A DNA stretch of 64,000 bases from Verrucomicrobiaceae bacterium. Lineage in GTDB: Bacteria; Verrucomicrobiota; Verrucomicrobiia; Verrucomicrobiales; Akkermansiaceae. The position numbers were made by a program, and so were the translations under genes. How positions within the stretch are numbered: the stretch's first letter is position 1; each line of letters begins with the position of its first letter. The notes under the pieces are model-generated. The model was not told the DNA's origin and made no database searches. It worked only from the letters and a program-made list of their open reading frames with translations. Below are positions 9,634 to 50,760 of this stretch, piece after piece. The stretch spans positions 1-64,000 of the forward strand of contig JAIXWR010000038.1 in the NCBI GenBank assembly GCA_027491155.1, read 5' to 3'.

Positions 9634-10953
9634 CTACCACAGCGGCTTGGCGAGGGTGGCCTCCCAGGCGGCGAGCTTGGCTTTGAGTTCCTTGAGCTTT
9701 TCCGGGTGCTTGGCGGCGAGATCGATTTCCTCGGAGACGTCGGCGGAGAGTTGGTAGAGCTCGGGCTTGGAGCCGGCCTTCTTGCCGCGGAGGTGGACCA
9801 GCTTCCAATCGGCGTCGCGGATCGCGACCGGGCCATCCGGGCCGTTGGTGCGCCAGAAGAGCGGACGCGCCGGCAGGGTGGCGGCGGGGTCCTTGAGGAG
9901 GGGAAGCAAGCTCAGGCCGTCGAGTTTCAGGTCGGGGCCGGGCTTGCCGCCGGCGGCATCGAGGAAGGTGGGCAGCCAGTCGAGGGTGATGACCGGGGTA
10001 TCGACGCGGCGGCCGGGGGTGATGGTGCCGGGCCAGCGCATGACCATGGGAACGCGGATGCCGCCTTCGTACACCTGGCCCTTGGCGGCGCGCAGCGGGG
10101 TGTTGATCCCGCCGGTGGCGGTCTGGCCGCCGTTGTCGTTCGAGTAAACGACCAGGGTGTTGCCGGCGAGGCCTTCCTTTTCCAGGCAGTCGAGGATCTT
10201 GCCGCAGTTGTCGTCGAGCGACTTCACCAGGGCGGCATACTTCGCGCGCTTGGGGCTGCCGAAGCGGCCGGCCTTTTCCAGGTCCTCCGGCTTCGGTTGC
10301 AGCGGGCCGTGCGGGGTGGTGAAGGAAACGAAGAGGAAGAAGGGCTTGTCCTTGTGGGAGCGGATGAAATCGCAGGCGCCGTCGCCGATGCGGTCGGTGG
10401 TGTAGCCACCCTCGGGGGTGGGCTTGCCGTTGAGCAGGAAGACCTGGTGGGGAGCTTCCTTTTTCATCGGGAAATAGGAACGCGAGCCCTGGAGCAGGCC
10501 GAAGAAGTGGTCGAAGCCGCGCTGGTTCGGCTGGTAGGCTTCGGGGTAGCCGAGGTGCCATTTGCCGATCAGCCCGGTGGCATAGCCGAGCGGTCGCAGG
10601 TGATCGCCGGCTAGCTTCTCGGTGAGGGGCAGGCCGCCCTTCATGTAGTTTGGCGGGATGTTGGTCTCGTGGCCGAAGCGCTGCTGGTAGCGGCCGGTGA
10701 AAAGCCCGGCGCGGGACGGCGAGCAGACGGCACCGGAGACGTAGGCCTGGTTGAAGACCACGCCTTCCTTCGCCAGGGCGGTGAGCCGCGGGGTGAGCCG
10801 CGCGAGGGCGGGATCGGCCTTTTCCTGGAAGCCGAAGTCGGCGTGGCCGGCATCGTCGGAAAAGAGCACGACAATGTTCGGCGGGGCGGCCGGAGCGGGA
10901 CTGGCGGCGAGCAGGGCCAGCGCGGCGAGGCAAGGGGCGAGGCGTGGAATCAT
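9634..10953 (-). CDS. Secreted type I sulfatase
   Basis: Hydrolyses sulfate esters, probably of a sulfated polysaccharide. The 439-residue protein has a signal peptide (1-22, ending PAPAA), the N-terminal metal-binding FSDDAGHADFG (31-41) and the sulfatase signature CSPSR with Cys77, the residue converted to formylglycine. GKWHLG and the SNDNGG metal site further down complete the active site. The frame continues 40 codons upstream, but the ATG at 10953 gives a clean signal peptide. It lies in a separate transcription unit from the other sulfatases. No sulfatase-maturating enzyme lies in the window, so maturation must come from elsewhere. Confidence 0.92.
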   Translation of the reverse strand: MIPRLAPCLAALALLAASPAPAAPPNIVVLFSDDAGHADFGFQEKADPALARLTPRLTALAKEGVVFNQAYVSGAVCSPSRAGLFTGRYQQRFGHETNIPPNYMKGGLPLTEKLAGDHLRPLGYATGLIGKWHLGYPEAYQPNQRGFDHFFGLLQGSRSYFPMKKEAPHQVFLLNGKPTPEGGYTTDRIGDGACDFIRSHKDKPFFLFVSFTTPHGPLQPKPEDLEKAGRFGSPKRAKYAALVKSLDDNCGKILDCLEKEGLAGNTLVVYSNDNGGQTATGGINTPLRAAKGQVYEGGIRVPMVMRWPGTITPGRRVDTPVITLDWLPTFLDAAGGKPGPDLKLDGLSLLPLLKDPAATLPARPLFWRTNGPDGPVAIRDADWKLVHLRGKKAGSKPELYQLSADVSEEIDLAAKHPEKLKELKAKLAAWEATLAKPLW

Positions 10954-13019: not shown

Positions 13020-13937
13020 TTATTCGGCAGCGGGTTCCGGGGCTTGGCGGACGACGCGCATTTCGATGTCGGGGAGTTTCTCGCCATCGACCAGGCGGTC
13101 CTTGGCGGTCCAGATCAGGGTGTCCTTGCCCTCGAGCTTGAGAGCCTGGTTGGCGCTGGTAGCCTCGCCGTCGGCGGTGGTGCCTTCGGTGCGGACCAGC
13201 CAGCCGTCTTCGGTGGGGGTCCAGTCGCCCTTGGCGAAGCCGCCGCCGTCGTCGAAGCTCCACCAGGTGATGGTCTTGCGGGCGGCGTCCCAGCCGATGC
13301 GCAGGTTGGTGGATTGCGGATCGCCGTCGGCGGTGGTGGCGAGCATTTCCCCGGCGATGAAGTTGCCGGAACCGTCCCAGCCGAAGGCGAGGTCGAGGCG
13401 GAGTCCGTCGCGCATCGCGGTCCAGTCGCCCTTCAGTGCGGTGGCGAGTTCGGCGAGCTGGCCGGCGGGGCCGGTGGTGTCGGCGAGGGCGCGGGTGCTG
13501 GCGATTTTCCAGGCGCCGGCTTCGTTTTTCTGGAGAACCGCGGTGTAAGCGGTGGATTTTGCCGGGGCGTTGTCGCCGGGCGGGGTGAAATGGACGGTCC
13601 CGTCCTCAACCGCCAGGTCCTTGCCGACGAAGCGGACCGAATCGACCTCCACGGCGACCGAGGGGACCTCGGCGGCGGCGAAGATCTCCTCGTAGCGGGC
13701 CTGGATCTCGGCGCGGCCGCTGGCGGTGTCGGCGGCCCGGAAGTCGGTCATTTCGCCGTTCTCGGTGAAGAGGGCGGCGATGGCGGCGGCATCCTTCGCG
13801 TTGTAGGCGAGGACGAAATCGGCCGCGGCCTGCTGGAGGCCGGCGATTTCGGGGGATGGTTCCTCCTGGGCGTGGAGGCCGGGGAAGTGGAAGAGCGCCA
13901 GCGCGAGGCAGGCGGCGAGTCGGGTCGGTGGTTTCAT
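13020..13937 (-). CDS. Exported NTF2/SnoaL-like (DUF4440-type) protein (module copy 1)
   Basis: A 305-residue protein with a signal peptide (about 1-23). The first domain (about 27-155) has the cone-fold pattern of NTF2/SnoaL-like proteins: FVLAYNAKDAAAIAALFTENGEMTD is diagnostic of the SgcJ/EcaC or DUF4440-type group. The second domain (about 165-295) is beta-rich with repeated Trp and Gly, resembling lipocalin-like domains. It is paralogous to 26382-27389 and in both places precedes an Asn-rich TPR gene, so the two products probably act together. The frame extends 19 codons upstream; the ATG at 13937 fits the signal peptide. A CTTTGCAAAG palindrome lies about 70 bp upstream. Confidence 0.8.
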   Translation of the reverse strand: MKPPTRLAACLALALFHFPGLHAQEEPSPEIAGLQQAAADFVLAYNAKDAAAIAALFTENGEMTDFRAADTASGRAEIQARYEEIFAAAEVPSVAVEVDSVRFVGKDLAVEDGTVHFTPPGDNAPAKSTAYTAVLQKNEAGAWKIASTRALADTTGPAGQLAELATALKGDWTAMRDGLRLDLAFGWDGSGNFIAGEMLATTADGDPQSTNLRIGWDAARKTITWWSFDDGGGFAKGDWTPTEDGWLVRTEGTTADGEATSANQALKLEGKDTLIWTAKDRLVDGEKLPDIEMRVVRQAPEPAAE

Positions 13938-14006
13938 GGGGAAGAATCGAAATCGGTTGTAGCGCGGGATGTCGCGACGGGAAGGGGAAAGCAAGAGAAG
14001 CGCGGG

Positions 14007-14016
14007 CTTTGCAAAG
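14007..14016. promoter_or_regulatory. CTTTGCAAAG palindrome upstream of module copy 1
   Basis: A perfect 10-bp palindrome 70 bp upstream of the NTF2-like gene start. The same palindrome occurs about 105 bp upstream of the paralogous gene (27495-27504). It could be a shared operator; no regulator is known, and chance occurrence is not excluded. Confidence 0.3.
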
Positions 14017-14037
14017 ACTGGCAGTAGCGGACCGGGG

Positions 14038-14065
14038 CCGCCATTGCACCTTGGTTCAATGGCGG
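14038..14065. other. Hairpin between sulfatase and NTF2-like gene
   Basis: CCGCCATTG (14038-14046) pairs perfectly with CAATGGCGG (14057-14065) across a 10-base loop, 20 bases past the arylsulfatase stop on the minus strand. There is no T tract, so it may be a weak terminator or an mRNA-stabilising stem. Confidence 0.4.
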
Positions 14066-14084
14066 GGAGGACCAGGACGGCGGT

Positions 14085-16427
14085 TCACTTGAGGGCCACC
14101 TTCACGCTGCCGATGGTGCCGTCGAACTTGAAAGGGCGACGCTTCTCGTAATCTCGAGAGACGGGAGAGCCGAGGTCGGTGCCGACGTCGAAGGTCTCGC
14201 TGGCGGTGAAGGCGGCGGGCACGGTCATCTTCACCGCGGCACGGGCGACTTCCTTGCCGTCCACGCTGAGGACGATGTCGGCGGGCGAGCCGGGTTTCGG
14301 GGCTTGGAGCGTGGTGTCGACGATGACGGTGTGCTTGCCGGGGGCGAGCTTGTCCTTCGATTTCGCCAGATAGCGCTCGATGATCATCATGTTGTATTCG
14401 AAGCAAAGGTGGCCGTCTTCCATGTAACAGGCGAGGCCGCCGCTGGCACCGCCGAGGGCGTAGAGCACGCCGCTGGCGTTTTCGCCGGTTTCCAGTTCGA
14501 GGGTCACGGTGTTGCTCTTCTTGCCAAGGCCCGGCGCGGTGAACTCGGGCATGCGGGTGGTGCTGCCGTCGAAGGTCCACGACTTGTAGGGGCTGGTGAT
14601 CACGGACGTCGCATCGATGCGGGTGAGCAGTCCACCACCGATGGGAAAGGCTTTGTTTTCCTTGGCCTCCGCCAGGAACAGCTCTTTCAACTCGGCGAGC
14701 TTCTCCGGGTGCTGCGCGGCGAGGTCGTGCATCTGCGAGAAGTCCTTCGTGAGGTCGTAAAGCTCCCACGGGTCCTTGGTGGCATCCCACCCGGCCAGTC
14801 CCTTCTGCACGGTCAGCCACGGGACGAGCGGGCCGAAGGTGCAGGCGAACCAGCCGTCCTTGTAGATGCCGCGGCTGCCGTTGTTTTCGAAATACTGCAC
14901 TTTCTTGGTTTCCGGTGCGTCGGGCTTCGTGAACGAGGCGGCCATGCTGACGCCATCGATCGGGTCCTGCGCCTCGCCGTTGACGATCTTCGGCGGGGTG
15001 ATGCCGATCACTTCGTAGAGCGTGGGCGCGACATCGTTGACGTGGTGGAATTGGGCACGCGGCGTTTTGTCCGGCTTGATGCCCTTGGGCCACGAGATCA
15101 CGAGCGGGTTGCGCGTGCCGCCGAAGTGCGCGGCGACGAGCTTGGTGGAGCGGAATGGCGAGCTGCCCGCCCAGGCCCAGCCGGCGTGATACATGTTGTC
15201 GGTGCTGGGGCTGCCGAGCACTTTCAAACCGCCGAGTTCATCCAGCGCCTTCATCTGCTGCTCGATGGTGTTGGGAATCATGTTCTGGGCGAGCAGTTCG
15301 CTGATCGAGCCCTTCTGTCCTTCGGCCGAGGCGCCGTTGTCGCCCCAGATGTAGAGGATGATCGTGTTGTCGCGCTGCCCGGTCTGGTCGAGGAAATCCA
15401 CGACCTTGCCGACCTGCGCGTCGGTGTGCTCGACGAAGCCGGCGAAGACTTCCATCAGGCGGGTCTGGAAGGCGCGTTCGGACTCGGGAATGTCGGTCCA
15501 TGCGGCCATCGTCTTGTCGCGCGGCGTGAGTTCGGTGTTGGCGGGGATCCAGCCGAGTTCCTTCTGGCGTTTGAACGTCTTCTCGCGCAGGACGTCCCAG
15601 CCGTCTTCGAACTTCCCTTTGTATTTGTCGGCCCACTCCGGGAAAACGTGATGCGGACCGTGCGCCGCGCCGGGTGCCCAGTACATCAGGAACGGCTTGT
15701 CGGGAGAAAAGGCGCGATGCTTTTTCATCCAGCCGATGGCCTTGTCCGCCATGTCCTCGGTGAGGTGGTATTTCTCATCGTGCGGCGGCTCGATGGCGTT
15801 GGTGTTCTCGATCAGGCGCGGCTCGTATTGCGAGGTTTCGCCGGCGATGAAGCCGTAGAAGTAATCGAAGCCGTAGCCGGTCGGCCACTTGTCGAAGGGG
15901 CCCATCGCCGTGGTCTGGTCGGCGGGCGAGTTGTGCCATTTCCCGAAGGCGGAGGTCTTGTAGCCGTAGTGGCGCAGCACCTCGGCCATGGTGGCCGAGG
16001 ACTTCGGCATGACGCCGCTGTAGCCGTCCCAATCCAAGGCGCGCTCGGCGATGGTGCCGCTGCCGACGCGGTGCATGTTGCGCCCGGTCAGCAGCGCGGC
16101 GCGGGTCGGGGAACAGATCGCGGTGGTGTGGAAGCGGTTGTAGCTGATGCCCTCGTCGCGAAGTTTTGTTAGAGTCGGCGTGTGGGCGAAGCCGCCGAAG
16201 GTGTCCGGCACGCCGAAACCGACGTCGTCAATCAACACGATGAGCACGTTCGGCGCGTCCTTTGGCAGACGATCCGGTTCGACGCGGCGCTGGTGGGTGG
16301 ATTCCTGCAAGGTCGGCCCCGCCTTGCTGGCGGAGGGCGTCGGTGGGAACGGCAGCACGGAGCCGTCGTCAGGCGCGGCGGCGGGAAGAGGCAACTGGAA
16401 GAAGAGGAGGGATAAGATGGCTCTCAT
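14085..16427 (-). CDS. Arylsulfatase, AtsA-like, with C-terminal extension
   Basis: A 780-residue secreted sulfatase, longer than the ~500 residues of minimal enzymes because of a long insertion before the DNG site and a ~200-residue C-terminal beta region. Signal peptide about 1-18. Metal site VLIDDVGFG (64-72), signature CSPTR with Cys105 as formylglycine precursor, AFGKWHNSP, and IWGDNGASAEG as the second metal site. Layout and the SPTRAALLTGRNMH segment match the large AtsA-type arylsulfatases (SulfAtlas S1_4-like, from memory). It is the last gene of a minus-strand run that starts with two beta-barrel genes and another sulfatase at 20.3-17 kb. Substrate is unknown. Confidence 0.92.
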   Translation of the reverse strand: MRAILSLLFFQLPLPAAAPDDGSVLPFPPTPSASKAGPTLQESTHQRRVEPDRLPKDAPNVLIVLIDDVGFGVPDTFGGFAHTPTLTKLRDEGISYNRFHTTAICSPTRAALLTGRNMHRVGSGTIAERALDWDGYSGVMPKSSATMAEVLRHYGYKTSAFGKWHNSPADQTTAMGPFDKWPTGYGFDYFYGFIAGETSQYEPRLIENTNAIEPPHDEKYHLTEDMADKAIGWMKKHRAFSPDKPFLMYWAPGAAHGPHHVFPEWADKYKGKFEDGWDVLREKTFKRQKELGWIPANTELTPRDKTMAAWTDIPESERAFQTRLMEVFAGFVEHTDAQVGKVVDFLDQTGQRDNTIILYIWGDNGASAEGQKGSISELLAQNMIPNTIEQQMKALDELGGLKVLGSPSTDNMYHAGWAWAGSSPFRSTKLVAAHFGGTRNPLVISWPKGIKPDKTPRAQFHHVNDVAPTLYEVIGITPPKIVNGEAQDPIDGVSMAASFTKPDAPETKKVQYFENNGSRGIYKDGWFACTFGPLVPWLTVQKGLAGWDATKDPWELYDLTKDFSQMHDLAAQHPEKLAELKELFLAEAKENKAFPIGGGLLTRIDATSVITSPYKSWTFDGSTTRMPEFTAPGLGKKSNTVTLELETGENASGVLYALGGASGGLACYMEDGHLCFEYNMMIIERYLAKSKDKLAPGKHTVIVDTTLQAPKPGSPADIVLSVDGKEVARAAVKMTVPAAFTASETFDVGTDLGSPVSRDYEKRRPFKFDGTIGSVKVALK

Positions 16428-40880: not shown

Positions 40881-42128
40881 CTAAAGCATCTCCGCGAAAC
40901 GCGGGCGATCCGCGGGATCGGTCGACTGGCAGCGGGCGGCGAGGGCCTGCCACCCGGGGAGCGGGTCGGGGCAGCGGTCGAGCAACTCGCCGAGCAGGCG
41001 GCCGAAGGCGAGGACCTCGAGTTTCTCAAAGCGGGCGTCGTCCGGCGGGTAGAACGATGCCGCGCCGAAGTCGCCGAGAAGGGCCGCGCCCTCGAGGTTC
41101 CGCAGCACGTTGTGGGCGTAGAAGTCGCCGTGAAGGATGCCTTTCGCGTGCAGCGCGGCCCCCGCGGACGCCAGGTCGCGTGCGATCTTCACCACCGCCT
41201 CGGCGGGGAACGAGGCCCCGGCGGGATAGACATCGCGGCTGCAAGTTTCGAGGTCGGGCGGTCCGGCGAGGAGGGTGAAGTCCGGCCCGACCAGGTCCAT
41301 CACCAGCCCCGGCGTCCCTTCCGGATGTCCCGCCAGATCGCCGAGCACGGGGATCAGGTTCGGATGCGGCCCGGCGGCGAGGCAGGCGGCGCGTTCTCGG
41401 TCGGGCAGGCCGTCGCTGGTCATGGCACCCTTGAAAAGCTTCACCGCCACCGGCTTGCCGTCGGAGCGCCGGGTCGCGCGGTGGATGATGCCGGACGCGC
41501 CTTCGCCGAGCTTTTCGTGGAGCTCGAGATCGGCCCAGTCGTGGGCCGCCGCGTCGGTTTCGGGCTCGCGGCACAGCGGGTTTCCGGCGAAGGCGAGCCA
41601 GGCGAGCTTCGGCAGGTCGAGCAGCCAGTCCGGCAGCCGTTCGAAGCGGTTGGCGGCCAGGCGGACCAGCTCGAGGTTCGTGCAGGCGGCCATCTCGTCC
41701 GGGAGGGAGGCGAGCCGGTTGCCGGAAAGCATCAGCTTTTGCAGCGGGGCGCAGCGGCCGATCGATGCCGGCAGCGATTCGAGGCGGTTGTCGGTGAGGA
41801 TCAGCCAGCGCAGCGACGGCGGCAGGGCGGCGACTTCCCCGATGCGGTTCGACTTGAAGCCGATCATCGACAGCCCCGGGCACTCCTCAACGACCGGCGG
41901 CAGGTGGCGGAAGTCGTTGTCCGAGCAGAAGAGGATCCGCAGCTTCTTCAGGCGCGGCAGGTCGTCGGGCAGGTCCGAGAGCCGGTTGCCCGTGAGATTG
42001 AGGACCTCCAGCGAGTCGGCGAGGTCGAGGATCTCCCCGGGAAACTCCGTGAGCCCGCAGGAAAGGTCGAGCCGCGTGCTGCCGGCGAGTTTTCCGGCGC
42101 GAAGGCGGGCGAGGGTCTCGGCGCTCAT
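40881..42128 (-). CDS. Leucine-rich-repeat protein kinase
   Basis: A 415-residue cytosolic protein: about six LRR units (residues 20-185, pattern LxxLxLxxNxLxxLP) followed by a eukaryotic-like protein kinase domain (about 200-415). The ATP loop GEGASG (208-213), Lys230 in VAVKLF, catalytic loop HGDFYAHN (333-340, Asp335, Asn340) and GDFG (352-355) are intact, so activity is likely, with Gly in place of Arg in the HRD triplet. No membrane helix. It overlaps the thioesterase gene by 4 bp (ATGA), and that gene overlaps rpiB, so kinase, thioesterase and RpiB are translationally coupled. The LRR part may recognise a protein partner. Confidence 0.9.
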   Translation of the reverse strand: MSAETLARLRAGKLAGSTRLDLSCGLTEFPGEILDLADSLEVLNLTGNRLSDLPDDLPRLKKLRILFCSDNDFRHLPPVVEECPGLSMIGFKSNRIGEVAALPPSLRWLILTDNRLESLPASIGRCAPLQKLMLSGNRLASLPDEMAACTNLELVRLAANRFERLPDWLLDLPKLAWLAFAGNPLCREPETDAAAHDWADLELHEKLGEGASGIIHRATRRSDGKPVAVKLFKGAMTSDGLPDRERAACLAAGPHPNLIPVLGDLAGHPEGTPGLVMDLVGPDFTLLAGPPDLETCSRDVYPAGASFPAEAVVKIARDLASAGAALHAKGILHGDFYAHNVLRNLEGAALLGDFGAASFYPPDDARFEKLEVLAFGRLLGELLDRCPDPLPGWQALAARCQSTDPADRPRFAEML

Positions 42129-42565
42129 CGGATCGCAACGAAGGTTCCCGAAAACGCCGTGCACACCCGGCCCGCTTCCTCGACGCTCACTTCGAGCCGG
42201 ATGCGCGCCTTGCCGGCTTTCGCGAAGGTCTTCCGGAAGAGCCCGAGTTCCGCTTCAGGCGGACGATGGCAGATCGCGCGAAGCGTGCCGGTCACCGGAT
42301 GCCGGTAGTCGAGCTCGCTGCGGCGGACGACGATGTGCGCGTCGCGGTCGCCGAGCTCCAGCCACAGCAGGCCGTAGCCCGCCAGTGTCGCGAGGGCGGC
42401 GAGGCTGCCGCCGAACGCGGTGCCGAGGTGATTGTGGTTCGCCTCGAGCGGGGCGGTGAGCACCAGGCCGTGCCCGTCGCAGGCCTCGACCCGGATTCCC
42501 ATCGCCCGGGTCAGCGGGATCTTCCGGTGGAAAAAGCGCTCGGTCTCGGCGAGGTCGGGGTTCAT
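42125..42565 (-). CDS. Hot-dog thioesterase, YiiD C-terminal-like
   Basis: A 146-residue protein with the YiiD_C-type hot-dog fold pattern: ANHNHLGTAFGGSLAALATLAGYGLLWLE (helix and active-site Asn/His region) and DAHIVVRRSELDYRHPVTGTLRAIC. Family members are putative acyl-CoA thioesterases. It is coupled on both sides by 4-bp overlaps, with rpiB upstream and the LRR kinase downstream. Why a thioesterase sits with a pentose-phosphate isomerase and a kinase is not obvious. Confidence 0.85.
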   Translation of the reverse strand: MNPDLAETERFFHRKIPLTRAMGIRVEACDGHGLVLTAPLEANHNHLGTAFGGSLAALATLAGYGLLWLELGDRDAHIVVRRSELDYRHPVTGTLRAICHRPPEAELGLFRKTFAKAGKARIRLEVSVEEAGRVCTAFSGTFVAIR

Positions 42566-43136: not shown

Positions 43137-43946
43137 TCAAGGGTCCGGGAGCCGTTGGGAATGCAGCCACCCGATCTGGCTGGCGTTGGCATCCTGCAGG
43201 AAGGCGGTCATTCCTTGCTTGTCGGCGGAATCCGCCAAGGTGGCATGCATCGAGGTGAGCCGGGCGGCCTTGTCCCGGCCGACCATCGCCTCGTTGCGGG
43301 CCAGCTGGACCCGGGCGATGGAAAAGGTTTTGGCGATGTCGTTCTCCAGCCAGTCCAGGCGGGTGTCCCAATCGGCGATGAGGATCGGGTCGATCTCCTC
43401 GACGCGCTTGCGGACGGCCGCCGCGTCCGGTGCAAGGGAGCCGTCGCACATCGCGTTCGCGAGGGTGAAGTAGGTCTCCCGCGTTTCGTTGCGGAAGTAG
43501 ACCTGGAGCATGGCGCGGTGGAGGGCCTCGCCGGCCGCGTCGGAAAAGACGGGATTGAGGTAAATCCTCAGTGCGGGAAGGGATGCTCCTTCCTTCGAAG
43601 CGTAGAGGTCCTGCAGGTTCTTGAAGCGGGTCCTGAAGGCGGCGTCGGTCCAATCGTGGGGCCAGGCGAGATGAACCGTCCGCAGCACGTTGGTACCGAT
43701 GACGATGCTCGGCACCTGGCCGCCGGGAACGGGCATCTCGCCGCCGTCCAGTGCCAGGGCGACCTGGTTTCCCTCGACCGCGTAGGGCCGGATGAGGTGG
43801 CGCGAGGGGTCGCCGCCGGCTTGTCCCGCCGATTCCCCCCGGCTGCCGTCCGGGGAGGACTGCTCCGGAGATCCGTTGAAGGCTGCGAACAGCAGCAGGC
43901 CCAGCATGGCGACAGGGATCAGCAGCTTGAGCGCGTTGGGAGGCAC
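43137..43946 (-). CDS. Membrane-anchored protein, possibly DsbA-fold without CxxC
   Basis: A 269-residue protein with one N-terminal membrane helix (about 5-23), then a flexible Ser/Gly/Asp stretch and a periplasmic helical domain. The order TVHLAWPHDWT, AAGEALHRAMLQVYFRNE, AMCDGSLAPDAAAVRKRVEEI and a final helical part recalls the helical insertion and C-terminal half of DsbA-like thioredoxin folds, but no CxxC is seen. The resemblance is weak and unverified. The start is GTG at 43946. Function unknown. Confidence 0.55.
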   Translation of the reverse strand: MPPNALKLLIPVAMLGLLLFAAFNGSPEQSSPDGSRGESAGQAGGDPSRHLIRPYAVEGNQVALALDGGEMPVPGGQVPSIVIGTNVLRTVHLAWPHDWTDAAFRTRFKNLQDLYASKEGASLPALRIYLNPVFSDAAGEALHRAMLQVYFRNETRETYFTLANAMCDGSLAPDAAAVRKRVEEIDPILIADWDTRLDWLENDIAKTFSIARVQLARNEAMVGRDKAARLTSMHATLADSADKQGMTAFLQDANASQIGWLHSQRLPDP

Positions 43947-44140: not shown

Positions 44141-45334
44141 ATGAGCCTTCCTCTAACACCCTTGCCGCAGCACCGGGCGCTGGTGGATTGGCTGAAGACG
44201 AACGAGAGCGAGGTGTGGCGGTGGCAATCCGATGCCGAGCGGCTGAGCCAGGATGCCGAGGAAGTCCGGCTTTCGTTGCTGCGCGACACCTACCGGATGG
44301 ATGCGGAGGGTCATCCGGAGTTGTTCGCGGAAATCTCCGCGGCGAAGGAGGCGCTGGGGCTTTCACACATCGAGGTGCACGCCTATCAGGCGCAGGGCCA
44401 TGCCACGCCCAACGCGGCGATCTGCTACCTCCCCGGCGAGGCGCACCTGATTTTCTCCGGCCCCATCCTCACGCTGCTGACCGCGGCCGAGCTGCGGGCG
44501 GTGATCGGCCACGAGCTGGCGCATCATCTCCTGTGGCAGATGGACGACGGGGATTTCTATCTGGCCGACCGCATCCTTCATCTGTCCGCCGCTCACCCGC
44601 AGGCGGAGCCGAGCCATGCGCAGAGTGCGCGGCTGTGGAGTCTGGCGACCGAGTTGTTCGCCGACAGGGGCGCTTATCGAGCAAGCGGTTGCCTGGAGAC
44701 CGCGGTGGTCAGCCTGGTCAAGACCTGCACCGGCTTGTCGCAGGTCAGCGGGAAGAGCTACCTTTCGCAGGCGGCGGAGATCTTTTCGAAATCGAAGCCG
44801 AAGACCGACCAACTCACGCACCCCGAGACCTTCATGCGGGCCCGGGCCTTGCAGTTGTGGGTGGAGGAAAGCAGCGAGCTCGATGCCGCCATCGCGCGGA
44901 TGTTGGAAGATTCGGACGGACTGGAGGAGCTGGACCTGATGCAACAGGTGAGCCTGAGCCGTTTGACGAAGCGCTTTCTCGCACGGCACCTGCGGCCGGA
45001 ATGGTTCCGCAGCGAGGCCGTGCTGGCGCACGCGCGGCTCTACTTTCCGGACTTCGCGGCGGAGGGCACGGCGGACGATGCCTTGCTCTCCGATGAACTC
45101 GCGTCGCTTTCGAAGCCGCGCCGCGAATTCCTCTGCCAGGTGATGTTGGATTTCTGTGCGGTGGACCCGGATCTCGAGGAGCTGCCGGTCGCCGCCGCGT
45201 TCGAGCGGGCGCGCGAACTCGAATGCCTGAGCCACTTTGAAAAGCTCGCGGCGAAAGAGTTGGGAATGAAAGCAAAGGACCTGAAGCGCCTGAAGGAGAA
45301 ATCGGCCGAGATCCTCGCCGCCGCCAAGCCATGA
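44141..45334 (+). CDS. Soluble M48-like zinc metallopeptidase coupled to the helicase gene
   Basis: A 397-residue protein with the zinc-peptidase motif HELAH (124-128, His124/Glu125/His128) and a downstream Glu in ATELFADRGAY (Glu171) matching the third zinc ligand of M48 peptidases. Unlike HtpX and Ste24 it has no membrane helix or signal, so it is cytosolic. About 220 residues of helical sequence follow the catalytic core, with a Lys-rich end (AKDLKRLKEKSAEI). Its stop overlaps the start of the 1809-residue helicase gene (ATGA at 45331), so the two are translated together. A protease that processes or is controlled by the helicase partner is a reasonable inference. Confidence 0.85.
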   Translation: MSLPLTPLPQHRALVDWLKTNESEVWRWQSDAERLSQDAEEVRLSLLRDTYRMDAEGHPELFAEISAAKEALGLSHIEVHAYQAQGHATPNAAICYLPGEAHLIFSGPILTLLTAAELRAVIGHELAHHLLWQMDDGDFYLADRILHLSAAHPQAEPSHAQSARLWSLATELFADRGAYRASGCLETAVVSLVKTCTGLSQVSGKSYLSQAAEIFSKSKPKTDQLTHPETFMRARALQLWVEESSELDAAIARMLEDSDGLEELDLMQQVSLSRLTKRFLARHLRPEWFRSEAVLAHARLYFPDFAAEGTADDALLSDELASLSKPRREFLCQVMLDFCAVDPDLEELPVAAAFERARELECLSHFEKLAAKELGMKAKDLKRLKEKSAEILAAAKP

Positions 45335-48300
45335 ACGAGCATCCCTTTCTTCAATTCCTCGAGCAGGGCATCGAACGCGGCGGCTTCGAGGTCGACGACG
45401 TTCTCGCGGCGGTCCTGCCGCTGATGCGCGAGGTGGCGGCCATCCACGACCTGGGGAAAGTCGCGCCGCTGCGGGGCCTGTCGGCGCTGGTGTTGCATGA
45501 GGACCGGGCGCTCGGATTGCGATCGGCGGAGGGCGTCGATGGCTCGTCGAACGCGATCAAGGTTTACCAATTCCAGGTGCCCGCCAGCCACGGTGTCGAG
45601 GTGATCGGTGAACTGCGGCGGGAGTCGAACGAGGAGCATTTCACCTCGAAGGTTTCCAACCTCGACGTCGCCGGGCCGGACGACGAAATCAAGCGGCCGG
45701 TTTTTCTAACAGGCTACTCGAATTGGGAGCACGCGATCGGCCATCACGACGCGCTGACCGACATCCACTCGCTCGGCATGCTGCTGGCGAGCCTGGCCTG
45801 CGGGCTGGATTTCACCGAGCGCGACGAGCTGGAACGCTTCGCCAACTCGCGGACGAACCTCTTCATCGTCGCCCCGCGCCTGCATCCGGTGGTCGCGGCG
45901 GTGATCCTCGAGATGACGGAGCTGCACCGCGGCAAGCGTTCGCAGGATCTTCCCTCGCTGATCCGGCGGCTGGAGCACTACCGCGACCAGCCGGTGGATG
46001 CCGATGTGCTCGCCTTGCCCGGGCTGGACACCGCGACCAAGGGCGGGCGGCGGCGGATCATCCAGACGCATCTGCGCGACCGGCTGTTCGAGGTCTCGCG
46101 GCGCAACCGGCTGCTGTATTTCAAGAGCTCGCAGGCGACGCTGAATCTCACCACCGCGAGCGTGCCGCTGGTGCTCGACTACCGGAACATCCGGCCGGAG
46201 CAACTGCTCTACTGGCACGACAGCCTGGCCGCGGAGATCGGATCCGGCCGCGCGCTGCCGCTGCAGAAATGGCTGCGCTATGAGGAAGCGCCGTATCTCC
46301 CCGGCCAGCTCGACAAGCTGATCAGCGACGCCCGCCGCAGTCGCGCGGAGTTCGGCTTCTCGCAGCTCCGGCTGGTGATCGCGTTCCTGCGCTGGAACAA
46401 TTTGAAGGAAGCGCCGCAGGAACGCATCCACTCGCCGCTGCTGCTTTTGCCGGTGGAGTTGGTGAAACGCAAGGGCGTGAAGGATCACTACACGCTCGAG
46501 CCGCAGGGCACGGAGGCCGAGGTGAACCCGGCGCTGCGCCATCATCTCAAGCAGCTCTACGACCTCGATTTGCCGGCGATGATCGACCTGCGGGAAACGA
46601 CGCTCGCCGCGTTTCACGAGAGCCTTTGCAAGCTGATCCACGCGACCGAGCCCAGCGTGACGCTCGCGCTTTCCGACAAGCCGAAGATCCAGCTCGTCCA
46701 CGAACGTGCGCGGCAGCGGCTCGACCAGTATCGCCGGCGCATGGCGCGGCAGGGGAGGAAGGTGAAGCGCGTCGGCAGCCTCGACTACAGCTACGACCGC
46801 GCGGACTTCCGGCCGCTCGGCTTGCAGATGTTCCAGAAGCTGGTGCTGCCCTCGCCGCTTCCGCTGCGCGAGTTGGCCGGTGCGCCGCCGCGGCCGCGGA
46901 CGCCGTTCATGGCGGGGGTGGTGACGGAGCGGAACATGTTCTCTTTGGTCGAGGAGGCGGAAGGGAATCCGTACTCGTGGGAGTTCGACTTGTGCGCGGT
47001 GACGCTCGCGAATTTCAGCTACCGCAAGATGACGCTGGTCCGCGATTACGCGAACCTGATTGAGCACGACACGCCGAGCCTGGCCTTCGACCGTGTTTTC
47101 TCGATCGAGCCGATGCCGGTCGAGGATGCCGCGCCGCCGCCGATGCCGCCGTCCGACCAGCACCTGATCATCGCGGCGGACGCGACGCAGGTCGGGGCCA
47201 TCGCGAAGTCGAGGCAGGGCGACAGCCTGATCATCCAGGGTCCGCCGGGCACCGGGAAATCGCAGACCATCACCAACCTCATCGCCGACTACGTGGCCCG
47301 CGGAAAACGCGTGCTGTTCGTCTGTGAGAAGCGCGCCGCGATCGACGTGGTGTTCCACCGCTTGCGCCAGCAGGGGCTCGATGAGTTGTGCTGTCTGATC
47401 CACGATTCGCAGACCGACAAGAAGGAGTTCATCCTCAACCTCAAGCAGACCTACGAGCAATGGCTTGCCGGCAGCGAGACCCACGATGGAGCGAAGCGCG
47501 GCGCCGCCTTGCGCGCGATGGAATCCGAGCTGGCGGCGCTTGAGAAATACGTCGGCCAGATGCAGTCGCAGCCGGCCGGCGCGGGGACCACGGTGAATGA
47601 ATTGTTGCGCCGGCTGATCGAGCTGCGCGGGACCCATGACGGCAGTGCTTGCCCGGATCTAACAGCCGAGGAGGAGGACCGGCTGCCGCACTATGACGAC
47701 TGGTTGAAGCACGGCGACGCGGTGCTCCGGCTGGGCGAGGTGCTGCGCGACCTCGGGGCGGAGCCGGTGTTCGCGCGGCATCCGCTGCGCTGGCTCGGGG
47801 AAACGGTGATCCTCCGCGAGTCGCCGCTGGATGGACTGGCGGCGCGTCTGGATGAGGCCGAGCGCGGTCTCGATGACCTGGACGACGCGCTCCAGCGGAC
47901 GGGCCTGCCGGTCGAGCACTGGGACACGCTGGCGGAAATCGGCCACTTGCTCGCGTTCTCGCAGCGCCTGCTGCCGCTGGCCGAGCGGGGGCTGCTTGAT
48001 CTGTTAGATGAGAAGAGCGGGCGGTCGGCATCGTTCGCGAAGCTGTGGGCCGACCACGAGGCGAAGCGCCGGGACCTCGACGCGAAGCGGGCGAAGACCG
48101 GTCACTGGGTCGACAAGTTGCCGCCGGACGACACGGCCGCCGCGCTGGCGCTCGCACCGAAAGTGCAGGGCTTGTTCGGCTTCTTGAATCCCGGCTGGTG
48201 GCGGTTGCGCAAGGTGCTGCGGGCGCGCTACGACTTTTCGAAGCATGCGGTCGCGCCGAGTTGGGAAGCGGTGCTTGGAGATCTTTCGGCCGAGCACGCC

Positions 48301-50760
48301 GCGGCGGCCGCGCTGGCGGAGGTGCAGGCCTGTTTTGTCCGGGATTTCGCCAGCAACGAGCCCGCAAACTTGGGTGCCGATCTGAAGTCGCTGGCTGATC
48401 CCGGAGCTCCTCCTGCGGTGGTGGCGCTGCGGACGCAGTTGCTGTCGTCGGATCAGGGCGTGGAACTGGTGAAGGCCCTGGCGGCCCTTGCGCCCGGGTT
48501 CCAGCGGCTGGAGAACAGCCTCCGCGAACTGCTCCACGGCGCGGATTCGCAGGGTCTTTCCTCGGTCGCCGCGGCGATCCGCGAGCTGCGGGAGGAAATG
48601 GACGCGCTGCCGGAACTCCTGCCGGCGCTGCGCGATCTCGCCGCGACGCCGGATGCGCTGCGACGGGCGGTGCGAGATTTGCCCTTCACCGCGGAGCAGC
48701 TCGAAGCCGCCTGCGCCCGCAAGACCCTGGAGCAGCTCTACCGCGAGGACCGCCTCCTTCAGCGCTTCGATTGCCACTTGCTCCAGCAAAAGCTCGACCG
48801 CCTCGCCAACGCGCACCGCCAGTGGCTGGAGCACAACGCCGGGTGGATCCGCGCCGGAGTGCGCAAGCGCTTCGTCGAACATGTCCAGCTCGCGAACCAA
48901 TCGGCGACGGTGCTCACCGCGGACCAGAAGGTTTTCAAGAAGAGCTACACCGCCGGCCGCCGCGAGCTGGAGCACGAGTTCGGCAAGACGATGCGCTACA
49001 AGTCGATCCGCGATCTCGCCGCGGGCGACAGCGGCGAGGTGGTGCGCGACCTCAAGCCGGTCTGGCTGATGAGCCCGCTCTCGGTGTCCGACACGCTGCC
49101 GCTCGACACCGGCTTGTTCGACGTCGTGATCTTCGACGAGGCCAGCCAGATCCCGGTGGAGGACGCGGTGCCGGCGGCTTACCGGGCGCAGCAGGTCATC
49201 GTCGTCGGCGACGAGATGCAGCTTCCGCCGACCAGCTTCTTCAGCAGTGCCGGCGATGCGGAGGACGAGATCACGGTGGAGGAAGAAGGCGAGTCGGTCA
49301 GCGTGCTGATGGATGCCGACAGTTTCCTGACCCAGTGCGCGCGCAACCTGCCGAGCACGCTGCTCGCCTGGCACTACCGCAGCCGCTACGAGTCGCTGAT
49401 CAGCTTCAGCAACGCGGCCTTCTATGGCGGCGAACTCTACACGATCCCCGACCGCCAGCTCTCGATCTCCGACAGCAGCGACCTGGTCGTGGAAACGCCC
49501 GATGAAGCCGCGAAACTGGTGCCGGAAATCCTTTCGCGGCCGGTCAGCTACCTCCGCTGCGAGAATTCTCCCTACGAGGATCGTCGTAATTCGACCGAAG
49601 CGGCCGTGGTCGCACGGCTGGTCCGCGGGCTGCTGGTTTCGGGAACGAAGTTCAGCATCGGCATCGCGGCCTTCAGCGAGGCGCAGCAGGGCGAGATCGA
49701 ATCCGCGCTCGATGCCCTCGCGGCGGAAGATGCGGATTTCGCCACCCGGCTGGAAGCCGAGTATGTCCGCGAGGAGGACGACCAGTTCTGCGGGCTCTTC
49801 GTGAAGAACCTGGAGAACGTCCAGGGTGACGAGCGGGACATCATTCTCATGTCCGTCTGCTACGCCCCGGACTCCGCGGGTAGGATGCGGATGAACTTCG
49901 GCCCGATCAACCAGCGCGGCGGCGAGAAGCGGCTCAACGTCATCTTCAGCCGGGCCCGCCATCACATGGTGCTGGTCAGCAGCATCCGCCACCACCAGAT
50001 CACCAACGACTACAACGATGGCGCACGGGCCTTGAAGAACTTCCTGCACTACGCCGAAAGCCTGTCGCGCGGCGAGGTGGCGATGGCGCGGCAGGTGCTC
50101 GATGGCCTGAACCCGCTCAAGCGGAAATCACTCGTCAAAGAGTCCGGCAACCTCCTCGCGGGCCAGATTTCCGCCGCCTTGGTCCGCCGCGGCTGGACGG
50201 CCGTGACGGATGCGGGGCAAAGCCGCTTCCGCTGCGACGTCGCGGTGCGCGAGCCCGGCTCGGACCGCCACCAGCTCGCGGTGCTGATCGAAGGCGGCGG
50301 CGCAGCCGACGTGCTGGAGCGCTTCCACACCCGGCCGGGCATCCTGCGGGCCTTCGGCTGGCAGGTCGCGGTGGTCACGGCGAAGGATTGGTGGCACGAA
50401 CCCGGCGCCGTGCTGGAGCGGATCGAGCGCCTGCTCCGCCGCGAGATCGCCGATTTGGAAGAGCAGGAAATCGAAGCCCCCGCGGCCGAGGTGGAACCTG
50501 CGCCCGCCCCGCCGGAACCCGCTCCCGCCCAAGCTTCGTCGCCCGCCGGCCCCGGCCGGCGCTTCGAGTTCACCGGCGGGAACTCCCGCAAGTTCTGGGC
50601 GGTGGCGCAGGAGGGAAATGAGATCCACATCCGCTTCGGCCGCATCGGCACGTCGGGGCAGACCCAGGTGAAGACTTTCGCCGACGAAGCACGGGCCGCA
50701 CGGGAAATGGCCAAGCTGATCGCCGAGAAGACCGGCAAGGGCTACGTCGAGGAGGGCTGA
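45331..50760 (+). CDS. Multidomain SF1 helicase/nuclease: kinase-C-lobe-like, DUF4011-like, helicase, Vsr-like nuclease, WGR
   Basis: An 1809-residue cytosolic protein. Residues ~1-220 resemble a protein-kinase C-lobe (TDIHSLGMLLASLACG, 143-158) without catalytic residues. About 235-600 is a DUF4011-like region (DRLFEVSRRNRLLYF). The SF1 helicase has Walker A GPPGTGKS (637-644), DEAS (1269-1272), GDEMQLPPT (1293-1301) and a C-terminal RecA part with NVIFSRARHH (1536-1545). Residues ~1610-1715 look like a Vsr/REase_MTES-type nuclease (RCDVAV with Asp1636, LIEGGG with Glu1654, FGWQVAVVTAKDWW). A WGR domain closes the protein (1744-1809; RFGRIGTSG). A long coiled, Ala/Leu/Arg-rich insertion (~720-1230) splits the helicase. 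The architecture is close to Hhe-type defence helicases (Gao et al. 2020, recalled), with WGR and an M48 partner added. Defence function is inference. Confidence 0.9.
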   Translation: MNEHPFLQFLEQGIERGGFEVDDVLAAVLPLMREVAAIHDLGKVAPLRGLSALVLHEDRALGLRSAEGVDGSSNAIKVYQFQVPASHGVEVIGELRRESNEEHFTSKVSNLDVAGPDDEIKRPVFLTGYSNWEHAIGHHDALTDIHSLGMLLASLACGLDFTERDELERFANSRTNLFIVAPRLHPVVAAVILEMTELHRGKRSQDLPSLIRRLEHYRDQPVDADVLALPGLDTATKGGRRRIIQTHLRDRLFEVSRRNRLLYFKSSQATLNLTTASVPLVLDYRNIRPEQLLYWHDSLAAEIGSGRALPLQKWLRYEEAPYLPGQLDKLISDARRSRAEFGFSQLRLVIAFLRWNNLKEAPQERIHSPLLLLPVELVKRKGVKDHYTLEPQGTEAEVNPALRHHLKQLYDLDLPAMIDLRETTLAAFHESLCKLIHATEPSVTLALSDKPKIQLVHERARQRLDQYRRRMARQGRKVKRVGSLDYSYDRADFRPLGLQMFQKLVLPSPLPLRELAGAPPRPRTPFMAGVVTERNMFSLVEEAEGNPYSWEFDLCAVTLANFSYRKMTLVRDYANLIEHDTPSLAFDRVFSIEPMPVEDAAPPPMPPSDQHLIIAADATQVGAIAKSRQGDSLIIQGPPGTGKSQTITNLIADYVARGKRVLFVCEKRAAIDVVFHRLRQQGLDELCCLIHDSQTDKKEFILNLKQTYEQWLAGSETHDGAKRGAALRAMESELAALEKYVGQMQSQPAGAGTTVNELLRRLIELRGTHDGSACPDLTAEEEDRLPHYDDWLKHGDAVLRLGEVLRDLGAEPVFARHPLRWLGETVILRESPLDGLAARLDEAERGLDDLDDALQRTGLPVEHWDTLAEIGHLLAFSQRLLPLAERGLLDLLDEKSGRSASFAKLWADHEAKRRDLDAKRAKTGHWVDKLPPDDTAAALALAPKVQGLFGFLNPGWWRLRKVLRARYDFSKHAVAPSWEAVLGDLSAEHAAAAALAEVQACFVRDFASNEPANLGADLKSLADPGAPPAVVALRTQLLSSDQGVELVKALAALAPGFQRLENSLRELLHGADSQGLSSVAAAIRELREEMDALPELLPALRDLAATPDALRRAVRDLPFTAEQLEAACARKTLEQLYREDRLLQRFDCHLLQQKLDRLANAHRQWLEHNAGWIRAGVRKRFVEHVQLANQSATVLTADQKVFKKSYTAGRRELEHEFGKTMRYKSIRDLAAGDSGEVVRDLKPVWLMSPLSVSDTLPLDTGLFDVVIFDEASQIPVEDAVPAAYRAQQVIVVGDEMQLPPTSFFSSAGDAEDEITVEEEGESVSVLMDADSFLTQCARNLPSTLLAWHYRSRYESLISFSNAAFYGGELYTIPDRQLSISDSSDLVVETPDEAAKLVPEILSRPVSYLRCENSPYEDRRNSTEAAVVARLVRGLLVSGTKFSIGIAAFSEAQQGEIESALDALAAEDADFATRLEAEYVREEDDQFCGLFVKNLENVQGDERDIILMSVCYAPDSAGRMRMNFGPINQRGGEKRLNVIFSRARHHMVLVSSIRHHQITNDYNDGARALKNFLHYAESLSRGEVAMARQVLDGLNPLKRKSLVKESGNLLAGQISAALVRRGWTAVTDAGQSRFRCDVAVREPGSDRHQLAVLIEGGGAADVLERFHTRPGILRAFGWQVAVVTAKDWWHEPGAVLERIERLLRREIADLEEQEIEAPAAEVEPAPAPPEPAPAQASSPAGPGRRFEFTGGNSRKFWAVAQEGNEIHIRFGRIGTSGQTQVKTFADEARAAREMAKLIAEKTGKGYVEEG

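What the first reader, a model, noticed from the sequence alone, without database searches (positions are those of the whole stretch)
44141..50760. Two-gene M48 peptidase plus kinase-like/DUF4011-like/SF1-helicase/Vsr-like/WGR protein: candidate defence system
A cytosolic M48-type peptidase gene (HELAH, Glu171) overlaps by ATGA an 1809-residue protein with DUF4011-like, SF1 helicase, Vsr/MTES-type nuclease and WGR regions. The DUF4011-helicase-Vsr combination is known from the Hhe-type defence candidates (Gao et al. 2020, recalled), but a coupled protease, a kinase-C-lobe-like N-terminus and a WGR end are, as far as I know, not part of a described system. A protease that is released or that processes the helicase on DNA damage or phage entry would fit the pattern of protease-gated immunity (inference). 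The chromosomal location between housekeeping genes (rpiB, ilvC) weakens the case for a defence island.
Basis: partly seen in the sequence, partly recalled or inferred. Interest (0 to 1): 0.82.

Follow-up and report, generated by a model that had tools for sequence, protein, structure and literature searches.

The report
Protease-coupled helicase gene pair
A zinc protease and a giant helicase protein sit in one conserved two-gene unit in Verrucomicrobia, an offshoot of a family that contains helicases named as phage defence; it may have swapped a DNA-cutting weapon for a protein-cutting one, but its function is untested.

Summary
44141-45334 encodes an intact M48 peptidase; 45331-50760 (ATGA overlap) encodes 1809 residues: kinase C-lobe without N-lobe or HRD-like motif, DUF4011, SF1 helicase, remodelled Vsr/MTES-type domain, WGR.

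The gene link is real: 16 distinct loci hold M48 upstream of the helicase (ATGA overlap in 14; one locus has a gene between), and three further genomes encode M48-(TerB-like)-DUF4011-helicase-MTES as one protein. One full-length relative (G143) lacks M48. These 20 helicases form one side of a 100/100 branch against 25 other DUF4011 helicases; 0 of the 22 of those loci examined carry the M48. The nuclease motif RDR[DE] is gone in 20 of 20 but kept in 25 of 25 of the others.

By curated cut-offs it is neither Hhe nor ProA. It is an accessory cassette; candidate defence genes stand near it in 2 of 16 loci scanned, not in the window. Best reading: a nucleic-acid-triggered, probably antiphage system with the helicase as sensor and the M48 protease as main effector. 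Rivals: DNA-protein-crosslink repair; a protease that processes the helicase. Function untested. New variant of a known kind.

The parts
44141..45334 (+). M48-type zinc peptidase gene (397 aa, P0001); helical C-terminal part (about 258-397) of unassigned fold
   Evidence: ORF; Pfam M48 3.5e-7; AlphaFold pLDDT 89.8; 3c37_A Z 9.7 / rmsd 4.6 / 171 aligned, ZMPSTE24 4aw6_A Z 9.3 / 4.0 / 182, HtpX 3cqb_B Z 7.3 / 2.4 / 92
44510..44524 (+). HELAH zinc motif (residues 124-128)
   Evidence: H124, E125, H128 invariant in 18 of 18 aligned
44651..44653 (+). Glu171, presumed third zinc ligand
   Evidence: invariant in 18 of 18 aligned
45331..45334 (+). ATGA start/stop overlap of the two genes
   Evidence: ATGA in 14 of 16 pair loci
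45331..50760 (+). 1809-aa pseudokinase-DUF4011-SF1 helicase-MTES-WGR protein (P0002)
   Evidence: ORF; Pfam
45337..45987 (+). Protein-kinase C-lobe without N-lobe (residues 3-219), predicted pseudokinase
   Evidence: AlphaFold; PknB 1o6y Z 14.4 / rmsd 3.2 / 154 aligned; Foldseek AMPK 6.6e-5; profile hits in solved structures are AMPK kinases, best E 0.022
46081..46548 (+). DUF4011 (residues 251-406)
   Evidence: Pfam 3.1e-16
47179..49983 (+). SF1 (Upf1-like) helicase, residues 617-1551, with a long insert between motif I and motif II
   Evidence: Pfam AAA_11/AAA_12; GPPGTGKS, GDxxQ and QGDER seen in the 20-row alignment, DEAS in 20 of 20
50164..50430 (+). MTES_1575 Vsr-like restriction-endonuclease-type domain with remodelled motifs (residues 1612-1700)
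   Evidence: Pfam 37.7 bits, cut-off 38.2; RDR[DE] absent, D1636 and E1654 kept
50563..50754 (+). WGR domain (residues 1745-1808)
   Evidence: Pfam 1.1e-17; found in 13 of 17 paired or solo relatives and 0 of 3 fused

Best explanation
A two-protein, nucleic-acid-triggered system, most likely antiphage. The large protein is the sensor: an ATP-driven SF1 helicase with DUF4011 and, in this branch, a WGR domain engages foreign or damaged nucleic acid. Engagement positions or unlocks the M48 zinc peptidase, which is the main effector and cleaves phage or host proteins. The nuclease-type domain is a leftover or a reshaped DNA-binding part, and the degenerate kinase C-lobe is a docking or regulatory platform. 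Shown: the conserved gene unit, natural fusions, intact peptidase and helicase motifs, remodelled nuclease motifs, kinase C-lobe fold (in a predicted model). Inferred: physical complex, order of events, proteolytic effector role, phage as trigger.
For: 16 distinct loci with M48 upstream on the same strand, ATGA overlap in 14 of 16. Three fused M48-DUF4011-helicase-MTES proteins in two families, with a TerB-like part below Pfam's cut-off. M48 and helicase identities track each other (r 0.987 over the 120 pairs of 16 loci, not independent). The 20 helicases (16 paired, 3 fused, 1 solo) are one side of a 100/100 branch against 25 others. Effector-swap signal: RDR[DE] 0 of 20 against 25 of 25, E at column 1652 0 of 20 against 19 of 25, while M48 is found in 0 of 22 control loci. 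H124, E125, H128, E171 invariant in 18 of 18. Three plasmid members of the sister group pass NCBI's 'anti-phage protein ProA' model (2225, 2372, 2317 bits, cut-off 1500). Accessory behaviour: 6 of 18 genomes of the genus have pair or fusion; absent from the ilvC-tetR interval in four. Candidate defence genes near 2 of 16 loci scanned: PDC-M68A and PDC-M68B (30.4 e-1 scale: E 2.3e-30 and 1.9e-40) about 1.3-4 kb from the fused gene in L072, and a SWIM_XIII match (E 2.6e-134) two genes after the helicase in L004.
Against: In 14 of 16 loci scanned, the window among them, no candidate defence gene beyond generic kinase or helicase types was found. No relative of the peptidase in plasmid or phage records or, by pattern scan, viral contigs; none of the helicase in viral contigs. 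One full-length relative, G143, has helicase, pseudokinase and WGR but no M48 beside it and none by the M48 profile in its genome. D1636 and an acid at 1654 remain in all 17 paired or solo proteins, so the nuclease may still work. The rate argument is mixed: the pair diverges far more than TypA, but IlvC diverges as much in two of three genomes. Nothing shows that the two proteins bind each other.
Confidence: 0.51

Rival explanations
1. DNA-protein-crosslink or stalled-complex repair: the helicase tracks DNA, WGR recognises breaks, and the M48 peptidase removes proteins stuck on DNA, working like SPRTN/Wss1 in eukaryotes.
For: WGR is known from PARP DNA-break sensors (recalled). Small-gluzincin-like core: the Foldseek list includes a DPC-repair protease structure, 6mdw, at E 0.98, not significant; Pfam SprT-like 22.8 bits, under its cut-off of 25.6. 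A DinG-type helicase gene lies next to the pair in L045, and the fused gene in L063 follows recA on the same strand (Pfam RecA 1.5e-128).
Against: Patchy: 13 separate and 2 fused in 260 genomes of the family, 12 of 18 genomes of the genus without it; WGR missing from 4 of 17 and from all 3 fused; sister proteins named antiphage; candidate defence genes near 2 of 16 loci.
Confidence: 0.19
2. Protease-gated activation: the M48 peptidase cleaves the large protein (for example its pseudokinase lobe or the long helicase insert), releasing an active helicase-nuclease.
For: Gene order with the protease first in 16 of 16; fusions show proximity; BlaR1-type proteases signal by cleavage (fold similarity only, Z 8.7, rmsd 5.1, 175 aligned; function recalled).
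Against: The nuclease motif is remodelled, so the nuclease is a weaker candidate for the end effector; G143 keeps the helicase without M48; no cleavage site known.
Confidence: 0.17
3. A housekeeping or stress function unrelated to DNA invaders, such as protein quality control or RNA turnover with an Upf1-like helicase.
For: SF1 Upf1/SMUBP-2-like helicase (solved-structure hits SMUBP-2, SEN1, Upf1); chromosomal place beside ilvC in the window and in L062; M48 proteins such as HtpX and BepA do quality control (recalled).
Against: 12 of 18 genomes of the genus lack it; far more divergent than TypA.
Confidence: 0.11

Closest known systems
ProA (NCBIfam NF058533 'anti-phage protein ProA'; PADLOC PDC-S37 matches the same stretch)
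   Same: DUF4011-family SF1 helicase with MTES/Vsr-type domain; P0002 matches, best stretch 557-1726, 687 bits; PDC-S37 667.9 bits
   Different: Below the 1500-bit cut-off that three plasmid ProA proteins pass; pseudokinase N-terminus found in 0 of 22 control loci; M48 partner; RDR[DE] lost; WGR end
Hhe (DUF4011-helicase-Vsr; NF042953)
   Same: Same central domain order; 452.7 bits
   Different: Cut-off 2000 not reached; no protease partner in Hhe as I recall it (Gao et al. 2020, recalled, not read)
Mokosh type I (MkoA/MkoB)
   Same: Kinase-type domain with a COG1112-type helicase; in the MkoA model a kinase region is at 20-175 (matched by the window's LRR-kinase), and P0002 matches it best at 791-1103 (124.7 bits)
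   Different: Kinase here is a C-lobe only with the catalytic motif replaced; no PLD nuclease (described for Mokosh in PMC11672841, passages read); protease instead
Hachiman (HamAB)
   Same: Works-like analogy: sensor helicase that restrains an effector (PMC12278908, start of abstract in search listings)
   Different: Nuclease effector; homology not tested
Shango (TerB + helicase + ATPase)
   Same: TerB-like domain with a helicase, as in the fused relatives (PMC10250203, passages read; TerB E 2e-4 to 9e-4, below cut-off)
   Different: Three separate genes; no M48 mentioned in the passages
M48 peptidases (HtpX, BepA, ZMPSTE24)
   Same: HExxH + distal Glu and catalytic fold
   Different: No membrane or secretion segment seen in the sequence (by eye); own C-terminal helical part; partner helicase

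Membership tests
M48 peptidase family | HExxH with distal Glu ligand | tested here: met
   H124, E125, H128, E171 invariant in 18 of 18 aligned
M48 peptidase family | Pfam PF01435 above curated cut-off, M48-type fold | tested here: met
   30.7 bits against 20.3; ZMPSTE24, BepA and HtpX among the best folds by VIA-align; Foldseek alone had no hit at E<=0.001
SprT/SPRTN-type DPC protease | Pfam SprT-like above cut-off | tested here: not met
   22.8 bits against 25.6
Hhe | NF042953 curated cut-off | tested here: not met
   452.7 bits against 2000
ProA | NF058533 curated cut-off | tested here: not met
   687 bits against 1500; plasmid proteins in L174, L142, L141 pass with 2225, 2372, 2317
MTES_1575 / Vsr-like nuclease | Pfam PF18741 above cut-off | tested here: not met
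   37.7 bits against 38.2, marginal; the relative in L071 has 60.6
MTES_1575 / Vsr-like nuclease | motif residues of the canonical group (D1636, E1652, D1654, RDR[DE]) | tested here: inconclusive
   M48 clade: D1636 18/20, E1652 0/20, acid 1654 20/20, RDR[DE] 0/20; canonical 23/25, 19/25, 25/25, 25/25
Mokosh | kinase domain with helicase | tested here: inconclusive
   C-lobe only; MkoA 124.7 bits, library gives no cut-off
Mokosh | PLD-family nuclease | tested here: not met
   No PLD family among the Pfam matches of P0001 and P0002 at E<=1; neighbours were not all scanned with Pfam
Active protein kinase | N-lobe and HRD/DFG motifs | tested here: not met
   The protein begins at the C-lobe; the position I read as HRD is A45-P46-L47, in 15, 15 and 16 of 16 (placement by hand against recalled PknB motifs)
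Antiphage defence system | location among other defence genes | tested here: inconclusive
   Candidate defence genes near 2 of 16 loci scanned (L004, L072), none but a generic LRR-kinase match in the window
Antiphage defence system | protects cells from phage | not testable with these tools
   needs phage challenge

The most novel reading that the evidence does not exclude
Within the ProA/Hhe-type helicase superfamily one branch replaced DNA cutting by protein cutting: a nucleic-acid-gated proteolytic immune system, in which an SF1 helicase carrying a kinase-lobe docking platform controls an M48 protease. The association exists both as one fused polypeptide and as a coupled gene pair, so the helicase chassis is modular in its effector.
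Probability: 0.35. Interest if true: 0.82.

Novelty: new variant of a known kind. Interest (0 to 1): 0.63.

Why it matters
DUF4011 helicases are widespread and some are named as antiphage; I found no mechanism for them in what I could read. A natural branch with an added, apparently intact protease and an altered nuclease motif gives a direct handle on which part senses and which part attacks. If the protease is the effector, it would be a helicase-triggered proteolytic defence. If it turns out to be repair, it would be a bacterial protease-helicase pair for protein-bound DNA. Point mutants would separate these outcomes.

Tried and rejected
Rejected: Hhe or ProA membership (curated cut-offs). 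Rejected: an active kinase. Considered: TerB in P0001's C-terminal part; Pfam gives none there, and the fused relatives match TerB only below its cut-off, so the likeness in P0001 is by eye. Considered: tetR as the pair's regulator in L044, L045, L062; tetR stands beside the SDR and RND genes also in genomes without the pair, so I dropped it. Considered: other hits of the M48 profile (69 of 387 genomes); of those outside the known pairs and fusions I opened four (G259, G050, G175, G595), and none has a P0002-like helicase in the stretch fetched; G125 (E 2.4e-4) has none either. The remaining weak hits I did not open.

Rescanning showed candidate defence genes in L004 and L072. I therefore moved the confidence of the best explanation from 0.48 to 0.51, the repair rival from 0.20 to 0.19, the housekeeping rival from 0.12 to 0.11, and the novel case from 0.33 to 0.35.

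Led nowhere: literature searches for the origin of the name ProA, DUF4011 with WGR (no paper), M48 with TerB and helicase, M48 with antiphage or defense island: no title or abstract start listed describes an M48-DUF4011 system; I saw listings, not the papers, and the library lacks most subscription papers. Viral contigs gave no relative. Plasmid and phage searches with P0001, and plasmid search with the fused M48 part, gave none. E. coli genomes gave no match to the Klebsiella helicase DNA. VIA-align barely tested residues 258-397 of P0001.

Of the 25 canonical helicases in the tree, 3 loci (L020, L037, L043) were not opened for M48; the 25 are the best-scoring of a larger set (88 of 276 genomes match P0002 somewhere, loci capped at 30) plus two plasmid hits. 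Of the 22 opened, 4 have little sequence upstream (L156, L170, L172, L173), so 18 have about 2 kb or more (coordinates). The 70 neighbours were chosen by me from ORF lists; L064, L067, L070 and the solo locus L050 gave none.

Full report
OBSERVATION. Both reading frames exist as described: 44141-45334 (397 aa, P0001) and 45331-50760 (1809 aa, P0002), same strand, joined by ATGA. The window is contig C4 of a 5.7-Mb, 46-contig genome, and each protein has one match there at the thresholds used. Pfam finds M48 in P0001, and in P0002 DUF4011, the SF1 helicase halves, MTES_1575 (just under its cut-off) and WGR.

THE PEPTIDASE. An alignment of 18 sequences keeps H124, E125, H128, E171 and further columns (Y82, Q83, A92, H227, P228, E229, R233) in all. 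The AlphaFold model is good (pLDDT 89.8). Its first 257 residues resemble M48 proteins: 3c37_A Z 9.7, rmsd 4.6, 171 aligned; ZMPSTE24 Z 9.3, rmsd 4.0, 182; HtpX Z 7.3, rmsd 2.4, 92. Foldseek alone gave no hit at E<=0.001, so the family call rests on sequence, motifs and this second look together. SprT scores below its cut-off. I see no membrane segment (by eye).

THE LARGE PROTEIN. Residues 3-219 of the model match protein-kinase C-lobes only (PknB 1o6y Z 14.4, rmsd 3.2, 154 aligned, chain 97-278). Foldseek's best are AMPK chains at 6.6e-5, and the ten solved-structure sequences that the profile finds at E<=1 are all AMPK kinases, best E 0.022. The N-lobe is missing, and where HRD should be (my hand alignment to recalled PknB motifs) there is a nearly invariant V-A-P-L, so I call it a pseudokinase. 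As a profile it is rare: 7 of 240 genomes match, 4 strongly (all members of this family); the 3 weak ones match only the C-lobe part of open frames of 491-685 aa. Helicase motifs are intact. WGR is in 13 of 17 paired or solo relatives and in 0 of 3 fused.

ARE THE GENES A UNIT? Starting from the peptidase: in the family 15 of 260 genomes match; 13 have a separate peptidase, each beside the helicase, and 2 have it fused to the helicase. In the phylum sample 7 of 288 match: 5 beside the helicase, 1 fused (G181), 1 weak hit without a helicase nearby (G125). A scan of named contigs gave five loci, all with the pair; three of them repeat loci from the genome searches. Starting from the helicase: 88 of 276 genomes have some match, but only 6 match over nearly the whole length, and 5 of those 6 have the peptidase next door. 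The sixth, G143, has no peptidase upstream, and the M48 profile finds none in its genome. In all there are 16 distinct pair loci: ATGA overlap in 14; L071 overlaps further; L004 has 843 bases with another open frame between. Identities of the two proteins across the 16 loci correlate (r 0.987 over 120 pairs, which are not independent), and the well-supported groups of the two trees do not conflict, though the peptidase tree is poorly resolved (4 of 13 inner branches starred).

FUSIONS. L048 (G181), L063 (G352) and L072 (G505) encode M48, a weak TerB-like part (20-22 bits, cut-off 24.4), DUF4011, SF1 helicase and MTES in one frame. They lack the pseudokinase and WGR. G181 is in another family than the other two.

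PLACE IN THE HELICASE FAMILY. A tree of residues 1205-1705 with 45 rows puts the 16 paired, 1 solo and 3 fused proteins on one side of a 100/100 branch, against 25 other DUF4011-type helicases, two of them from plasmids. I opened 22 of those 25 loci (20 from genomes, 2 from plasmids): the M48 profile and the pseudokinase profile found 0 of 22 at E<=0.1, 18 of them with about 2 kb or more upstream. Three plasmid proteins (L141, L142, L174) pass NCBI's ProA model (2317, 2372, 2225 bits against 1500), while P0002 (687) and fused L063 (530) do not; none of these reaches Hhe. Bias to note: the fused proteins and most pairs were found through their M48, so fused-lineage helicases without M48 could have been missed.

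NUCLEASE. Against the canonical set, the M48 clade lost RDR[DE] (0 of 20 against 25 of 25) and the first acid of the E-x-D motif (0 of 20 against 19 of 25), but keeps D1636 (18 of 20 against 23 of 25) and an acid at 1654 (20 of 20 against 25 of 25). This is a difference between two clades, not 20 independent events. It says the site is remodelled, not that it is dead. The domain is described as a novel Vsr-type nuclease, in a Microbacterium testaceum protein with HEPN, transglutaminase and SF1 helicase, in PMC3710099 (passages read).

CONTEXT. The pair is accessory. In the genus (18 genomes) 5 have the pair and 1 the fusion, and all 18 have ilvC. In G351 and G178 the pair lies between ilvC and a tetR gene; in G251 it lies beside that tetR with ilvC 11 kb away; in G345, G346, G352 and G349 the ilvC-tetR interval lacks it; in G354 ilvC stands directly beside typA (TetR by Pfam). 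For G251, G178 and G351, identities to the window are: TypA 98, 97, 96%; helicase 79, 78, 84%; peptidase 76, 79, 82%; but IlvC 97, 86, 85%. So the pair diverges much more than TypA, and more than IlvC only in G251.

NEIGHBOURS. I scanned 70 neighbour proteins of 16 loci (13 pair loci, 3 fused) with PADLOC. Seven match at E<=1e-5: the window's LRR-kinase, an SNF2 protein in L003, a DinG in L045 and a HerA-like ATPase in L063, all of generic type; and three that are candidate defence genes: PDC-M68A (2.3e-30) and PDC-M68B (1.9e-40) beside the fused gene in L072, with one gene between, and a SWIM_XIII match (2.6e-134) in L004, two genes after the helicase on the same strand with gaps of a few bases or an overlap. 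So candidate defence genes are near 2 of 16 loci. No random-gene control was run, so I cannot say whether 2 of 16 is more than expected. What SWIM_XIII and PDC-M68 do I do not know.

MECHANISM. Shown: unit, fusions, intact catalytic motifs, remodelled nuclease motif, kinase C-lobe model. Inferred: the helicase senses, the protease acts, the pseudokinase docks or regulates. The strongest argument for the protease as effector is the contrast inside the family: canonical helicases keep the nuclease motif and have no M48, while this branch has the protease and a changed nuclease motif. The strongest arguments against are G143, which keeps the helicase alone, and the lack of defence neighbours at most loci. 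Repair of protein-bound DNA remains a serious rival (recA beside the fused gene in L063; DinG beside the pair in L045).

KNOWN AND NEW. Closest are ProA and Hhe (same core), Mokosh (kinase plus COG1112-type helicase; PMC11672841, passages), Hachiman as a works-like analogy (start of abstract in listings) and Shango for TerB with helicase (PMC10250203, passages). The last paper also uses a large DUF4011 gene as a core flank of a P. aeruginosa defence hotspot, a reminder that DUF4011 proteins can be core genes. In eLife 2020 (PMC7159879, passages) metallopeptidases are mentioned as rare effectors of other conflict systems. No title or abstract start listed describes an M48-DUF4011 pair. I rate it a new variant of a known kind.

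Noticed in passing
window 40881-42164 (-): Leucine-rich-repeat protein fused to a protein kinase domain (427 aa), a few genes upstream of the pair; Pfam LRR_8 and kinase matches.
   Followed up: partly
window 43137-43946 (-): 269-aa ORF beside the pair with no Pfam match at E<=0.01 and no relative at E<=0.001 in the other 17 genomes of the genus.
   Followed up: partly
L072:12922-13701 and 13919-15628 (+): Beside the fused M48-helicase gene of G505: an HNH-effector-like protein (PDC-M68A 2.3e-30) and a DUF2326/LmuB-like ATPase (PDC-M68B 1.9e-40), a candidate defence pair.
   Followed up: partly
L004:11177-13063 and 13060-14622 (+): Directly after the helicase, a 628-aa protein without Pfam or PADLOC match and a 520-aa protein matching PADLOC SWIM_XIII (446.6 bits), apparently in one operon with the pair.
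   Followed up: partly
L063:3931-9732 (-) and 9899-10930 (-): In G352 the fused gene follows recA on the same strand (Pfam); the same genome has another DUF4011-type helicase match on contig C43.
   Followed up: partly
L064 (G356:C346): The pair of this genus member groups with those of another genus (g3) although its TypA is 94% to the window; transfer or a misbinned contig in a 61%-complete genome.
   Followed up: no
L004:4952-5794: A short open frame, like the repeat-companion proteins that I recall from Planctomycetes, sits between M48 and helicase.
   Followed up: partly
L069:6700-6924: Helicase of G420 stops right after the nuclease domain; no WGR found in the locus by tblastn at E<=0.001.
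   Followed up: partly
G357:C126:104576-104950: A GTPase-domain match lies in an open frame reported as 24759 aa; either a giant gene or a masked stretch of N.
   Followed up: no
L143:2843-4000 (-): In G259 a distant M48 protein (385 aa) sits near two Hsp70-like proteins (by eye).
   Followed up: no
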